A stretch of DNA of 48,500 nt from contig JAIBCJ010000006.1 in assembly GCA_019694145.1 (NCBI GenBank), forward strand, positions 1 to 48,500, written 5' to 3'. This document shows, in pieces, positions 4,085-39,824 of the stretch (position 1 is the first letter of the stretch; every line of letters starts with the position of its first letter). The notes beneath the pieces were generated by a model. The model saw nothing but the letters and a program-made list of their open reading frames with translations. It searched no databases and was not told the DNA's origin. The stretch is from Solirubrobacterales bacterium (GTDB lineage Bacteria; Actinomycetota; Thermoleophilia; Solirubrobacterales; 70-9). Position numbers and translations under genes: made by a program.

Positions 4085-4515
4085 CAGCCTTCGCTTCCGT
4101 TCGAGCCCTGGTTGGTCGTGATCTCACTCTGGCTGAGCGGCACGTACCACTGGCCGTCTTCCTTGACGAACTTCGCTTCGCGGCTGGTGCCGCCCTGGAA
4201 CGTGACCGCGGCGATGTCGCCATTCACTTCGATCGTGTCGATCTTGAGGACACCCTGGTCACCGGCCGCCTTGAGGATCGGGGTCGTTTCACTTACGCAA
4301 CGGTCGATGTCGTGAAAGGTCTGCTCGACCGCACTGGGCTGCATGATCAGGCAGAAGGCCGAGGCATCCTTTTCCTGGGTCGCCTGATTCAGCTTGGCGA
4401 CGAGTTCGGTGATCGCCTGGCTGTCCTCGCTCGAAGTCGAGTCATCGGACCCGCCGCAGGCGGAGACCAGCGTTGCCGATCCGATCAGGGCGCAGATTGC
4501 GACTTTTCGCAGCAT
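4084..4515 (-). CDS. Small secreted lipoprotein with NTF2/SnoaL-like features
   Basis: 143 residues. The N-terminus is a lipoprotein signal peptide with lipobox VSAC at residues 17-20, followed by a Gly/Ser/Asp linker, so the mature protein should be lipid-anchored outside the membrane. The body ([22 protein letters not shown]...PSAVEQTF) followed by strands ending in [13 protein letters not shown] resembles NTF2-like/DUF4878-type extracytoplasmic domains; this is a fold guess from the pattern only. Two Cys in the body (FCLIM, DRCVSE) could form a disulfide. It is the first gene of the hisIE-trp operon, with a TAGGAT -10 box six bases before the ATG, and its stop overlaps hisIE. Function unknown. 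Confidence 0.8.
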
Positions 4516-4521
4516 GGCCCA

Positions 4522-4527
4522 ATCCTA
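4522..4527 (-). promoter_or_regulatory. -10 box (TAGGAT) for the lipoprotein-hisIE-trp operon
   Basis: TAGGAT on the minus strand ends six bases before the ATG at 4515, placing the expected transcription start at or next to the start codon (leaderless mRNA). No convincing -35 is visible. Confidence 0.55.
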
Positions 4528-4572
4528 CGAAAGCCTGACCGGGATCCGGTCGCACGATGCCGGCTTGCCGTC

Positions 4573-4578
4573 TAGGGT
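4573..4578 (+). promoter_or_regulatory. -10 box (TAGGGT) for the zinc metallopeptidase gene
   Basis: TAGGGT ends seven bases before the ATG at 4586, so the mRNA should begin at the start codon. It is divergent from the lipoprotein promoter within a 70-base gap. No clear -35. Confidence 0.5.
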
Positions 4579-4585
4579 TCAGGCC

Positions 4586-5536
4586 ATGAAGTGGAAGCGA
4601 GGCCGTTCAGGCAACCGGAACGTGATCGATATCCGCGGCGCGAAGAGGGGCGGCGGAGGCGGCGGTGGTGGCTTCGGCGGCATCGGTGGCATGGGCGGTG
4701 GCGGTATGCAGCTGCCGGGCGGCAAGGGCAAGATCGGCGGCCTGGTCGGCGTGATCATCGTGATCATCGTGATCGGCACCCAGGTTCTCGGCGGGGGCGG
4801 CTCCGGTGGCGGCACCGGCTTCGACATGGGATCGATGTTCCCGGGAATGGGCGCCGTGCCCGGCGCGGAGAATCCCTCCCCGATCCCCGCCGGCGAGGAC
4901 CCGGATGCCGACCTCAAGGATTTCTCGGCCTACGTCTTCACCGACGCCCAGCAGGTCTGGCGCAAGGCCTTCACCCGGGACGGCCGGCGCTGGCAGGACG
5001 CGCAGCTGGTGCTCTACTCGGGCGCGGTCAGCACCGGTGGCTGCGGCAACGCCACTTCGGCGGTCGGCCCCTTCTACTGCCCGGCCGACAACCGGGTCTA
5101 CCTGGATCTGAGCTTCTACAAGGACATGAAGAACCAGCTCGGGGCCGACGGCGACTTCGCCTGGGCCTACGTGATCGCCCACGAGATGGGCCATCATGTC
5201 CAGAACATGGGTGGCATCTCCGACGAGGTTTCCCGCGAGAAGCGTGAGCAATCCGAGTCACGCAACGAGATCTCGGTCCGTAACGAGCTTCAGGCCGACT
5301 GCCTCGCCGGAGTCTGGGCGTCAACCGTCTTCGACCAGCTCGAGGCCGGCGACCTGGACGAGGCGATCGGCGCCTCCGAAGCGGTCGGTGACGACCGCCT
5401 CCAGTCCCGCGGCGGCGGCAGCGTCAACCCCGACTCGTTCACCCACGGAACCTCCGCCCAGCGCCACAGATGGTTCAAGACCGGCTTCGAGTCGGGAGAT
5501 CCGGCCAGCTGCGACACGTTCTCGGGCGACATCTAG
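4586..5536 (+). CDS. Membrane-anchored neutral zinc metallopeptidase (YpfJ-like)
   Basis: 316 residues. Seen: a basic N-terminus, a Gly-rich stretch (residues about 24-45), one transmembrane helix (about 53-68, VGVIIVIIVIGTQVLG), a second Gly/Ser linker, then a catalytic domain with WQDAQLVLYSG, conserved Cys pairs (GGCGNATSAVGPFYCP) and the zinc motif HEMGHHVQ near residue 197, followed by NELQADCLAG, where the Glu is the likely third ligand. This is the architecture of the neutral zinc metallopeptidase family (PF04228, YpfJ); its substrates are not known to me. An in-frame reading extends further upstream, but the start at 4586 is set by the -10 box seven bases before it and by the onset of the basic/Gly-rich N-terminus. 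Confidence 0.9.
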   Translation: MKWKRGRSGNRNVIDIRGAKRGGGGGGGGFGGIGGMGGGGMQLPGGKGKIGGLVGVIIVIIVIGTQVLGGGGSGGGTGFDMGSMFPGMGAVPGAENPSPIPAGEDPDADLKDFSAYVFTDAQQVWRKAFTRDGRRWQDAQLVLYSGAVSTGGCGNATSAVGPFYCPADNRVYLDLSFYKDMKNQLGADGDFAWAYVIAHEMGHHVQNMGGISDEVSREKREQSESRNEISVRNELQADCLAGVWASTVFDQLEAGDLDEAIGASEAVGDDRLQSRGGGSVNPDSFTHGTSAQRHRWFKTGFESGDPASCDTFSGDI

Positions 5537-5620: not shown

Positions 5621-5667
5621 AGGTGCCGCACATTCAGGCCCTTGATGGGCCTATTTTTGCGGCGCCT
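5621..5667 (+). repeat. 47-nt nested hairpin element, copy 1
   Basis: Outer arms of ten bases (5621-5630 AGGTGCCGCA with 5658-5667 TGCGGCGCCT) enclose a symmetrical five-by-five internal loop and an inner stem (5636-5641 AGGCCC with 5647-5652 GGGCCT). A second copy lies at 29486-29532 in the opposite orientation: 39 of 47 positions are identical and the differences preserve pairing. The outer U-G pair at positions 4/44 fits RNA made from the plus strand here. Confidence 0.75.
5636..5658 (+). terminator. Intrinsic terminator of the metallopeptidase gene (inner part of the nested hairpin)
   Basis: AGGCCC-ttgat-GGGCCT followed by ATTTTT, 100 bases after the stop at 5536, in the gap between converging genes. 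This is a short, standard-looking rho-independent terminator on the plus strand. The rest of the 5537-5790 gap holds another GC-rich inverted repeat (about 5566-5581) and no convincing gene. Confidence 0.6.
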
Positions 5668-5790
5668 ATCCCGGATCCGGCCGGATATCGATCGAGATCG
5701 GAGTTGGGTGCGCTATATGGCAGAAAACGGGATCTCGAAAAGCCAACACCACCCCACTTCAGCGGCTGGTGGTTCCTGGCGCCACCCGGG

Positions 5791-6699
5791 CTAATCAATG
5801 CCGAGGCGGTCCAGCATGTCTTCGTCGCGGCGCCACTTTCGCTTGACCTTGACCTGGAGGTCGAGGTGGACCTTGCCGCCGAGTTCCCCTTCGATGTCCT
5901 TGCGGGCCCCGGTGCCGATCTCTCCGACCTTGAAGCCCTTCTTGCCGATCAGGATCCGCTTCTGGGAGTCCGATTCAACCCAGATCTCGGCGTCGACCAG
6001 CCAGAGGCCGTCTTCGCGCTGCTCGATCCCGGTCACCCGCACCTCAACCGAATGGGGAATCTCGTCCCGGGTGCGGATCAGGGCCTGGCCCCGGATCAGT
6101 TCGGCCAGAAGCAGTTCCCGCGGCTGATCGGAGTGATCCTCCGGCGGGTAGAGGTAAGGCCCCTCGGGGACGATCGAGGCCAGGTACGAGGCGAGTTCCG
6201 GCACGCCCTGACCGGTCAGGGCACTGACCGGGAAAACCTCGTCGACACCGGCGAGCTCCGCGGCGGCGACCAAGACCGGCACGATGTTCCGGCCGAGCCG
6301 GTCGGCCTTGTTGACGGCGCAGATGATTGGCAAGCCGCCGGCTTTGGCCCGGGCCCCGAGCAGGGTTTCGGCGATGAACCGGTCGCCCGGCCCGACGCCT
6401 TCCTCGCCATTGATCACCAGCAGGGCGACATCGGCCCCCGCCAGTTCGCTTTCGACCGTCTTCTGCATGCGGCTGGTCAACTCGTCCCGGGGCCGCTGGA
6501 CCCCGGGCAGATCGACCAGAACCAGCTGGGTACCGGCCTCGAGGTCGGTCGCCACTCCCCGGATCGCCCGGCGCGTGGTCTGGGGCCGGACCGAGGAGAT
6601 CGCGACCTTGGCCCCGACGATCGCGTTGACCAGGGTCGACTTGCCGACGTTCGGCCTTCCGGCCAGTCCGACGAAACCCGAGCGGCTGCCTTCACTCAT
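5791..6699 (-). CDS. era: GTPase Era, ribosome assembly factor
   Basis: 302 residues. Binds the 3' end of 16S rRNA during 30S maturation. Seen: G1 GRPNVGKS (14-21), a switch region with SVRPQTTRR, G3 as VDLPG (the more common form is DTPG; the DxxG requirement is still met), G4 NKAD (near 129), G5-like SALTGQG, and a C-terminal KH domain with RILIGKKGFKVGEIG (GKKG as the GXXG loop). The ATG overlaps the 3' end of ybeY by 8 bases. recO, often next to era in actinobacteria, is not here. Confidence 0.96.
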   Translation of the reverse strand: MSEGSRSGFVGLAGRPNVGKSTLVNAIVGAKVAISSVRPQTTRRAIRGVATDLEAGTQLVLVDLPGVQRPRDELTSRMQKTVESELAGADVALLVINGEEGVGPGDRFIAETLLGARAKAGGLPIICAVNKADRLGRNIVPVLVAAAELAGVDEVFPVSALTGQGVPELASYLASIVPEGPYLYPPEDHSDQPRELLLAELIRGQALIRTRDEIPHSVEVRVTGIEQREDGLWLVDAEIWVESDSQKRILIGKKGFKVGEIGTGARKDIEGELGGKVHLDLQVKVKRKWRRDEDMLDRLGID

Positions 6700-13583: not shown

Positions 13584-13612
13584 CACCCGGCCCGGGTTCA
13601 CCGAGTGCCCGG

Positions 13613-13635
13613 TTTGTGCCGGTATGCGGCACAAA
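13613..13635. repeat. Perfect 9-bp hairpin between lepA and the dehydratase pair
   Basis: TTTGTGCCG-gtatg-CGGCACAAA. No T-tract follows on either strand. It may help end lepA transcription together with the GC-rich inverted repeats at about 13640-13690. Its core GTGCCG/CGGCAC resembles the outer arms of the 47-nt element, but it lacks the inner stem. Confidence 0.5.
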
Positions 13636-13695
13636 GTGGGATCTCGCGGGGCCGCCCGGGGGGGCGGGCCGGGACGCCGCCCGGGACGCGGCGGG

Positions 13696-27882: not shown

Positions 27883-28872
27883 TCAGGCGGCCGGGATCTG
27901 CTGCGTGATGCAGTGGATGCCGCCCCCGCCGAGGGCGAGGGTGCGTCCGTCGATCCCGATCGCTTCCCGATCAGGGTAGAGGCGACCGAGCAACTCGAGC
28001 GCCTGGGCGTCCATGTCCGGGTCGATGCCGCTGACCGGGACGATCAGGGCGCTGTTGGCGATATAGAAGTTCGTGTACGGCACCACCACCGAGTCGCCCT
28101 CGCCTTCGATCCGCGGGAGCAGATCGAGTTCGACCACCTCGAGTCCGGCGTCGACGAGTCGGGCGAGGTTGGCCTGGGCGTTCGGCACGTTCGGATCGCC
28201 TTCCGGCGCGGTCTGGAGCAGAACCCGGCCGGGTTCGATGAAGGCGCAGATGTTGTCGACGTGCCCGTCGGTGTCTTCGTCCTCGATCAGGCCCTGGTCG
28301 AGCCAGACGAACATCTCGATATCGAGTCTGGAAGCCAGTTCTGCTTCGATCGCCGCCTGGTCGAGATCGGGATTCCGGTTCGGGTTGAGCAGGCATTGCC
28401 CGGTCGTGACCAGCGTCCCCTCCCCGTCGACCGCGATGGATCCGCCCTCGAGGACCAGGTCGGAGCTGATCTTCTCGATTCCCAGGTGATCGAGGATGCG
28501 ACCGGCGATCGCCGCGTCGTTGTCGTAAGGGAGAAACGCTTCACCCCAGGAGTTGAAGGTGAAGTCGATTCCGGCCCGGCGGCCTTCGCCGGTGACGATG
28601 ACCGGCCCGGAATCCCGGAGCCAGGAATCGTCGATCGGGGCTTCGAAGATCTCCACGTTTTCCGCCGGCACCCGCCCGCGGGCGTCGCCCGCCTGGGAGG
28701 GGTCGACGACCAGCAACACCGGTTCGAACTCGGCGATCGCGGCCACGACTTCCGCGTGGGTGTCACGGGCGTCCTCGATCGTCGTTCCCCGCCACGCGTC
28801 TTCCCGCTGCGGCCAGGCGACCAGGGTCATTTCGTGGGGCGCCCATTCGGCGGGCATGCGCAGATCGCTCAT
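27883..28872 (-). CDS. aguA: Agmatine deiminase / peptidylarginine-deiminase-like amidinotransferase
   Basis: 329 residues. Belongs to the Porphyromonas-type PAD/AguA family: DDSWLRDSGP (81-90) with the substrate-binding Trp and Asp, DGHVDN with catalytic His204, and nucleophile Cys321 in GGGGIHCITQQ. Agmatine deiminase converts agmatine to N-carbamoylputrescine; the usual partner aguB is not adjacent, so the assignment rests on the motif set. Leaderless start with TAGACT. Confidence 0.88.
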   Translation of the reverse strand: MSDLRMPAEWAPHEMTLVAWPQREDAWRGTTIEDARDTHAEVVAAIAEFEPVLLVVDPSQAGDARGRVPAENVEIFEAPIDDSWLRDSGPVIVTGEGRRAGIDFTFNSWGEAFLPYDNDAAIAGRILDHLGIEKISSDLVLEGGSIAVDGEGTLVTTGQCLLNPNRNPDLDQAAIEAELASRLDIEMFVWLDQGLIEDEDTDGHVDNICAFIEPGRVLLQTAPEGDPNVPNAQANLARLVDAGLEVVELDLLPRIEGEGDSVVVPYTNFYIANSALIVPVSGIDPDMDAQALELLGRLYPDREAIGIDGRTLALGGGGIHCITQQIPAA

Positions 28873-28878
28873 GGCGCG

Positions 28879-28884
28879 AGTCTA
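28879..28884 (-). promoter_or_regulatory. -10 box (TAGACT) for aguA
   Basis: TAGACT six bases before the ATG at 28872, in the 92-base divergent gap shared with the secreted SnoaL-like gene. Confidence 0.55.
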
Positions 28885-28896
28885 CCCCCGGCCCGC

Positions 28897-28925
28897 TTGC
28901 CTGTTTTCACCCCGCCGGGTAGGCT
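28897..28925 (+). promoter_or_regulatory. Promoter of the secreted SnoaL-like gene (-35 TTGCCT, -10 TAGGCT)
   Basis: TTGCCT (28897-28902), a 17-base spacer and TAGGCT (28920-28925). Unlike most genes here it has a leader of about 30 bases with a Shine-Dalgarno AGGGAG (28955-28960) four bases before the ATG. Confidence 0.7.
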
Positions 28926-28964
28926 CGCCGCAGTTACCTTCGCTTGACCAACCCAGGGAGACAC

Positions 28965-29474
28965 ATGGAAGCCATCGCCCCGCGCTTCTCGCGCCGACTG
29001 ACACTTGTCCTCGCAGCCGTTCTGCTGGCCGCGACCTTCGCCTTCACGACCGCTGCGCCCGGCGCCGACGCCAGGGCCGGATCGTCGACTGCGCAGACCG
29101 GTGTGCTGAAGGGCTGGCCGACCAAGCAACGGCTCGCGACCGAGTTTCTGCGACTGCTGAAGAACGAGGACACCGACGGGCTCCGTCGTTTCCTCGACCC
29201 CGCTTTCCTCCTCCAGCGCGGTGACGGCAGTTACCTGACCAAGTCCGAATACCTCAAGGATCCTTCGGAAGTCTTCGCCTTCAAGGTCCGCAACATCGTC
29301 GCCACCCACAACGGTGACGTGAGGGTGCTTCGCTTCGAGGCGAAGACCGACCAGATCGTCAACGGCAACCCGGTTCCGGGGGTTTGGATCCCCCGGCTTT
29401 CGACCTTCAAGAAGACCGGCAAGGTCTGGCGCCTGATCGCCCACGCCAACTTCCTCCCGCCCGTCGCGACCTAG
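28965..29474 (+). CDS. Secreted protein with SnoaL/NTF2-like domain
   Basis: 169 residues. A Sec signal peptide (RRLTLVLAAVLLAATFAFTTAAPGADA) ends near residue 36. The mature part (TKQRLATEFLRLLKNEDTDGLRRFLDPAFLLQRGDG ... VLRFEAKTDQIVNG ... KTGKVWRLIAHANF) follows the SnoaL/DUF4440 pattern of a cone-shaped alpha+beta barrel. No lipobox, so it is probably released. The AGGGAG ribosome site chooses the ATG at 28965 over an ATG seven codons upstream. Function unknown. Confidence 0.8.
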   Translation: MEAIAPRFSRRLTLVLAAVLLAATFAFTTAAPGADARAGSSTAQTGVLKGWPTKQRLATEFLRLLKNEDTDGLRRFLDPAFLLQRGDGSYLTKSEYLKDPSEVFAFKVRNIVATHNGDVRVLRFEAKTDQIVNGNPVPGVWIPRLSTFKKTGKVWRLIAHANFLPPVAT

Positions 29475-29485
29475 AGGAACAGCCG

Positions 29486-29532
29486 AGGTGCCGCAAAATC
29501 AGCCCCGTCACGGGGCTGGATGTGCGGCACCT
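29486..29532 (-). repeat. 47-nt nested hairpin element, copy 2
   Basis: Same architecture as 5621-5667 read on the opposite strand: 10-bp outer stem (AGGTGCCGCA/TGCGGCACCT), five-by-five internal loop, and a 7-bp inner stem CAGCCCC-type with loop TGA. It lies 12 bases after the secreted SnoaL-like gene and 86 bases downstream of tRNA-Ala in the tRNA's direction. Confidence 0.75.
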
Positions 29533-29570: not shown

Positions 29571-29617
29571 GTGGGGACCGCCCGCCGTACGCGGGGACTT
29601 CGAGGAGAACTTACGAG

Positions 29618-29690
29618 TGGAGCTACCCGGGATCGAACCGGGGACCTCTTGCATGCCATGCAAGCGCTCTGCCAGCTGAGCTATAGCCCC
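29618..29690 (-). tRNA. tRNA-Ala, anticodon GGC
   Basis: 73 nt. Reads GGGGCTATAGCTCAGCTGGC at its 5' end; acceptor stem GGGGCTA/TAGCTCC includes the G3-U70 pair that defines alanine identity. Anticodon stem CTTGC/GCAAG with loop ATGGCAT gives GGC, decoding GCC and GCU. The T-arm has GGTTCGATCC. The discriminator is A; CCA is not encoded (CTC follows), so a CCA-adding enzyme is needed. Confidence 0.97.
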
Positions 29691-39503: not shown

Positions 39504-39509
39504 ACGGTA
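39504..39509 (-). promoter_or_regulatory. -10 box (TACCGT) for the serine hydrolase gene
   Basis: TACCGT six bases before the ATG at 39497, just downstream of the rpmA terminator. Confidence 0.55.
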
Positions 39510-39522
39510 CCCCGGAAAATGC

Positions 39523-39551
39523 AAAAGAAAAGGCCCGCGGAGCGGGCCTTT
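39523..39551 (-). terminator. Intrinsic terminator of the rplU-rpmA operon
   Basis: On the minus strand GGCCCGC-tcc-GCGGGCC (39548-39532) flanked by AAA/TTT and followed by TTTTCTTTT. It lies 18 bases after the rpmA stop. The clearest intrinsic terminator in the window. Confidence 0.92.
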
Positions 39552-39569
39552 CCGAATCCTGTTTCCCGG

Positions 39570-39824
39570 TTACTCGGCCGGAGCGACCGAGATCGTCCTG
39601 CCGCGGCGGCCGGGCTTGAACTCGACCGTGCCGGGCCGGGTGGCGAAAATGGTGTGGTCACGGCCGAGGCCGGTGCCCTCGCCGGGCCAGAACTTCGTGC
39701 CGCGCTGGCGGACGATGATCTCGCCGCCGGAAACGGTTTCTCCGGCGAAGACCTTCACCCCGAGCATCTTCGGGTTCGAGTCACGACCGTTCCGTGAGGA
39801 TCCGAGTCCTTTCTTATGCGCCAT
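39570..39824 (-). CDS. rpmA: 50S ribosomal protein L27 (bL27)
   Basis: 84 residues. [20 protein letters not shown] is the L27 start, with [21 protein letters not shown] and [20 protein letters not shown]. The N-terminal tail reaches the peptidyl-transferase centre. No Firmicutes-type N-terminal cleavage extension. The ATG lies 11 bases inside the 3' end of rplU. Confidence 0.97.

What the first reader, a model, noticed from the sequence alone, without database searches (positions are those of the whole stretch)
5621..5667. A 47-nt nested hairpin occurs twice in opposite orientation with compensatory changes
Seen: copy 1 (plus, 5621-5667) and copy 2 (minus, 29486-29532) are both exactly 47 nt and identical at 39 positions. 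Of the eight differences, positions 18/30 swap G-C for C-G, 4/44 change U-G to U-A, and 22/26 gain a G-C pair; the others fall in or next to the internal loop. The 10-bp outer stem, the five-by-five internal loop (CATYC opposite a T-rich strand) and the inner stem are all kept. Inference: the RNA fold is under selection, so this is a dispersed structured element (terminator family, processing site or small RNA domain), not a chance palindrome.
Basis: partly seen in the sequence, partly recalled or inferred. Interest (0 to 1): 0.6.

Follow-up and report, generated by a model that had tools for sequence, protein, structure and literature searches.

The report
Short palindromic repeat at gene ends
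The two matching hairpins are members of a 47-letter palindromic repeat that occurs about 32 times in this bacterium and in a few sister species, mostly just past the ends of genes that point at each other, and in two places inserted in frame inside protein genes; it probably spreads by copying and may help end or protect messages on both strands.

Summary
In detail: 5621-5667 (+) and 29486-29532 (-) are 47 nt each, 39 identical, with the stated paired changes. A covariance-model search found about 32 sites in this draft genome and about 35 more in sister species. Almost all are 47 nt; eleven other same-genus genomes have none, and the class shows only weak single matches. Arms (AGGTGCCGCA/TGCGGCACCT) are nearly invariant; the inside varies but stays largely paired. 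Of 52 intergenic sites with both neighbours called, 31 lie between convergent genes, 21 between co-directional genes, none between divergent genes. Copies also sit in frame inside two conserved protein genes; most sister genomes lack them there. About 15 sites are shared between species, yet the interior there is as different as between random copies, so copies are homogenised within a genome or gaps are re-used. The T-run that makes the window copies look like terminators occurs in only 7 of 66 copies. No REP transposase (Y1_Tnp) was found in any genome with more than one copy. Best reading: a REP/MITE-like palindromic repeat, moved by an unknown factor, sitting at gene 3' ends where it can act as a two-way transcript-end hairpin. 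RNA-level selection is possible but not shown.

The parts
5621..5667 (+). copy 1 of the 47-nt palindromic repeat, between a zinc-metallopeptidase gene (+) and an Era-like GTPase gene (-)
5636..5658 (+). inner hairpin of copy 1 followed by ATTTTT: terminator-like site on the + strand
   Evidence: consensus match only
29486..29532 (-). copy 2 of the repeat, between a + strand ORF ending at 29474 and tRNA-Ala (- strand)
29617..29690 (-). tRNA-Ala(GGC); copy 2 lies 84 nt past its 3' end; in G010, G003 and G012 this place holds an ordinary G+C hairpin with a T-run and no 47-mer
4409..5536 (+). neighbour of copy 1: putative neutral zinc metallopeptidase (PF04228)
5791..6699 (-). neighbour of copy 1: Era-like GTPase (MMR_HSR1 + KH_2)
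28965..29474 (+). neighbour of copy 2: ORF called by codon usage, stop codon 11 nt from the repeat; the stretch is conserved in the genus. An overlapping ORF on the - strand (28869-29444) had no Pfam hit and I judged it the weaker call

Best explanation
Both copies belong to a clade-specific family of short dispersed palindromes (45-nt core GGTGMCGC...GCGKCACC, 47 nt with the end pair). Shown: about 32 sites in this genome; nearly constant length; fixed arms and a variable but largely paired inside; gene 3' ends, above all convergent gaps; none in divergent (promoter) gaps; presence/absence between species; in-frame insertions in two protein genes; species-specific interiors at shared positions. 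Inferred: the element is copied around the genome by a factor acting in trans (not a recognisable Y1 REP transposase), or old copies are overwritten by other copies of the same genome. It is kept where it does no harm and can help, namely past stop codons, where its two-fold symmetry gives nearly the same hairpin in the messages of both convergent genes and can end them or shield their 3' ends. In copies 1 and 2 a T-rich stretch after the inner stem gives an intrinsic-terminator-like end.
For: Copies and length. Fixed arms, variable inside: (by my count from its table about 2% changes in the arms, 30% inside). Pairing and paired changes. Location 31 convergent / 21 co-directional / 0 divergent, against 13/129/34 for other gaps of the same loci. 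Insertion: in-frame copies in a phosphodiesterase-like gene and a FemAB-like acetyltransferase gene, absent from most sister genomes; 20 orthologous gaps without the repeat. Shared positions with species-specific interiors. The same place past tRNA-Ala holds ordinary terminators in G010, G003, G012. Terminator-like site in copy 1.
Against: No mobilising gene was identified: no Y1_Tnp, no target-site duplication. A 3'-end location could simply mean that insertions elsewhere are removed. The T-run occurs in only 7 of 66 copies, and the terminator scan found none at copy 2. Related species do without the repeat at the same gene pairs. The location background comes from the same loci and a home-made gene caller.
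Confidence: 0.6

Rival explanations
1. A family of intrinsic, two-way transcription terminators: the fold itself is what selection keeps.
For: 3'-end location with no divergent gaps; the C55 gap is 57 nt and almost only the repeat, the G010 equivalent 56 nt; paired changes above shuffles; hairpin plus T-run in copy 1; ordinary terminators at the same tRNA place in sister species. Compensatory evolution of terminators is reported in Bacillus cereus (PMC5381666, title and abstract).
Against: No T-run in 59 of 66 copies; copies inside genes, read in frame; only about 32 copies per genome; sequence shared between unrelated loci, which independent evolution of terminators would not give; the terminator scan finds none at copy 2.
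Confidence: 0.2
2. A purely selfish or neutral palindromic repeat with no host role; the 3'-end location reflects removal of harmful insertions, and paired changes come from copying plus arm correction by template switching.
For: Patchy presence, in-gene copies, homogenised interiors, weak G-U excess; template switching homogenises inverted-repeat arms (PMC8604942, abstract).
Against: Positions shared between species whose neighbouring proteins are 77-97% identical suggest that some copies are kept; the arms stay intact while the inside has turned over.
Confidence: 0.3
3. REPINs moved by a REP-associated tyrosine transposase (RAYT).
For: Inverted pair of conserved short arms with a variable inside, forming a hairpin, dispersed and mostly extragenic, as described in PMC3116915.
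Against: No PF01797 match in G000 or in G010, G011, G013, G007. These are drafts of 74-94% completeness, but the absence is general.
Confidence: 0.06
4. Paired binding sites of a dispersed DNA-binding or recombination protein (nucleoid protein, integron-like recombinase).
For: Nearly invariant 9-10 bp arms at fixed distance.
Against: The inside also pairs and co-varies; absent from close relatives; in-gene copies; the arms lack the GTTRRRY/RYYYAAC ends that mark integron attC sites (by inspection; the attC definition is from my own knowledge).
Confidence: 0.06

Closest known systems
REP sequences / REPINs (PMC3116915)
   Same: Short inverted arms, hairpin, many mostly extragenic copies, conserved ends with variable inside.
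   Different: No RAYT gene found; fixed length of 45-47 nt; a few copies inside genes; arms not linked to a transposase gene.
Rickettsia palindromic elements (review PMC10969869)
   Same: Palindromes found in non-coding DNA and, in frame, inside conserved protein genes.
   Different: Much shorter (45-nt core against about 150 bp); only two in-gene loci firmly shown among about 32; unrelated bacterium and sequence.
Stem-loop sequence families of bacterial genomes (PMC2267715)
   Same: Intergenic repeated families with a common predicted hairpin.
   Different: Another sequence family; here with cross-species positions and turnover examined.
Intrinsic transcription terminators
   Same: 3'-end position, G+C hairpin, T-rich stretch in the two window copies.
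   Different: T-run in 7 of 66 copies; one repeated sequence shared by unrelated loci.

Membership tests
REPIN / REP | inverted conserved arms with spacer, predicted hairpin | tested here: met
REPIN / REP | many dispersed, mostly extragenic copies | tested here: met
REPIN / REP | REP-associated tyrosine transposase in the genome | tested here: not met
   no PF01797 in the repeat-rich genomes (drafts, 74-94% complete)
Rickettsia palindromic element | palindromic insert read in frame in conserved proteins | tested here: met
   for two genes
Rickettsia palindromic element | length of an RPE (about 150 bp) | tested here: not met
   45-47 nt here against about 150 bp (PMC10969869); RPE sequences themselves were not compared
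Intrinsic terminator | G+C stem directly followed by a T-run | tested here: not met
   7 of 66 copies; met for copy 1
Intrinsic terminator | transcript ends at the site | not testable with these tools
   no RNA data held
MITE | target-site duplication | tested here: not met
   flanking direct repeats no longer than in controls
Rfam family | covariance-model match at gathering score | tested here: not met
   only the tRNA in the window
Integron attC site | GTTRRRY / RYYYAAC ends | tested here: not met
   arms are AGGTGCCGC/GCGGCACCT (by inspection)

The most novel reading that the evidence does not exclude
A palindromic repeat without a recognisable transposase whose positions at gene 3' ends are kept between species while the sequence at those positions is repeatedly overwritten by that genome's own version, i.e. 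concerted evolution of mobile two-way transcript-end hairpins.
Probability: 0.25. Interest if true: 0.75.

Novelty: new variant of a known kind. Interest (0 to 1): 0.5.

Why it matters
Short palindromic repeats of the REPIN kind are tied to a REP transposase. A family of fixed length without one, tied to convergent gene ends, entering proteins in frame, and evolving in concert at shared positions would make it testable how such repeats move and whether they are recruited as transcript ends in a poorly studied class of bacteria.

Tried and rejected
RAYT/Y1 transposase: absent from the repeat-rich genomes. Rfam: no match. A simple 18-base pattern in 84,980 genomes gave 13 stretches; one (Solirubrobacterales HKST-UBA64) is the same-genus copy seen as G011. 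The two others I read (L052, L062) have unrelated insides, and about four chance hits are expected by simple arithmetic; the rest were not read. Viral contigs: 0 and 1 hits, the one unrelated inside. Weak class-wide matches in G304, G226, G261, G212, G040 were not counted as members. Target-site duplications: none. The idea that all convergent gaps of the genus hold long palindromes was dropped: other gaps have stems close to shuffled ones, although some orthologous gaps do hold palindromes of other families. Two scripts failed or printed nothing and one stopped midway (completed).

Full report
What was checked. Copies 1 and 2 are as described: 47 nt, 39 identical columns, the stated paired changes, folds far better than shuffles; similarity ends at the outer stem. 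The window is one contig (C21, 48,500 nt) of a draft genome of 2.55 Mb in 233 contigs, 81% complete.

The family. A model of the two copies found about 20 sites in this genome, and a model of 28 copies about 32. Apart from several 48-nt versions and one or two irregular matches, every copy is 47 nt. The outer ten positions of each arm are nearly invariant while the inside differs from the consensus at about 30% of positions (my count). There are two sub-families in this genome, one with ACATTCAG after the first arm, one with AGGTTTGC...GCAAACCT. The inside keeps pairing: 83.4% of cells paired against 78.0% when partners are shuffled, 51 against 32 cells with both sides changed; pairs 17/31 and 23/25 stand out. 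Relatedness of the copies inflates such counts, so they show a kept palindrome and not by themselves an RNA function.

Where it lives. Same-genus genomes G010, G011, G013 and G007 hold about 10, 7, 13 and 4 sites, G001 one and G002 one weak; eleven others none; the rest of the class only weak singles. In a tree of the phosphodiesterase-like gene G000, G010, G011, G013, G007 and G001 separate from the rest; a second short gene places G012 differently, so the clade is only approximate. Of 52 intergenic sites with both neighbours called, 31 are convergent, 21 co-directional, 0 divergent; other gaps of the same loci are 13, 129 and 34. Genes were called by my own codon-usage script, so single assignments may be wrong. 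Both window copies are convergent: copy 1 between a zinc metallopeptidase and an Era-like GTPase, copy 2 between a short + strand ORF and tRNA-Ala.

Insertions in genes. One copy lies in a phosphodiesterase-like gene (adding EVPQKQPRDGAKRAAP), another in a FemAB-like acetyltransferase gene (EVPHVSDRDGAERAAP), both in frame with intact coding signal on either side. Same-genus orthologues lack the insert, except that G010 and G013 hold their own versions at the same place of the phosphodiesterase gene. The gaps in these alignments are longer than the repeat and the loops are variable, so they do not fix the exact insertion ends. A third ORF (C115) may end through a copy.

Positions and turnover. 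Neighbour proteins 77-97% identical link about 15 sites between species, including copy 1 with a G013 site. At these shared sites the inside is no more alike (0.53) than in random copies of the two genomes (0.52; 187 of 500 draws as high), while copies within a genome are more alike (0.59 overall, 0.72 in G010). Either copies are overwritten from within the genome, or the same gaps are entered again. The order of other palindromes in one shared gap differs between species (C38 against G013_C6), which favours re-entry there; in another (C14 against G013_C228b) it is the same, which favours descent. For six G000 sites, 20 orthologous gaps in other species hold no copy.

How it may work. Copy 1 has a hairpin followed by ATTTTT, and at copy 2's place G010, G003 and G012 have ordinary hairpin plus T-run terminators. 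But only 7 of 66 copies have such a T-run, and the scan finds no terminator at copy 2. Being close to two-fold symmetric, the repeat forms nearly the same hairpin in the messages of both convergent genes; I infer that it ends or shields transcripts on both sides where it is kept, and that it spreads by copying. The mobilising enzyme is unknown: Y1_Tnp is absent and there is no target-site duplication. Paired changes do not need RNA selection, because template switching homogenises the arms of inverted repeats (PMC8604942, abstract).

Comparison. It looks like a REP/REPIN-type repeat (PMC3116915) but fails the transposase test, and it resembles Rickettsia palindromic elements (PMC10969869) in entering genes in frame, but is far shorter. 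Families of intergenic stem-loop repeats are known in other bacteria (PMC2267715). A text search of the held library for Thermoleophilia with palindromic repeats found nothing relevant, which is weak evidence of novelty.

Noticed in passing
window 13602-13646: A different imperfect palindrome (CGAG..TTTGTGCCG / CGGCACAAAGTGGGATCTCG) in a short intergenic gap; look-alikes recur beside the 47-mer in other contigs and at the tRNA-Ala place of G013.
   Followed up: partly
window 5690-5737: Next to copy 1: CGAGATCGGAGTTGGGTGCGCTATATGGCAGAAAACGGGATCTCG, with arms like the previous family and an inside like a longer palindrome seen in C56 and C75.
   Followed up: partly
L045:351-431, L051:2003-2085: Copies C56a and C75 are followed by a 23-nt tandem half copy of the repeat.
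   Followed up: partly
L236, L239, L240, L246, L248, L250, L252 (orthologous gaps): Several convergent gaps in sister species hold long palindromes of other families, including one of more than 100 nt with GCCGTGGGGT..ACCCCACGGC ends.
   Followed up: partly
G000 contigs C15, C70, C151, C45 (L126, L127, L128, L133): Contigs end inside a copy of the repeat, so the assembly appears to break at these palindromes and the copy number is a minimum.
   Followed up: no
window 39507-39573: Longest inverted repeat of the window by arm length (32-nt arms, 72% complementary), with runs of A and T.
   Followed up: no
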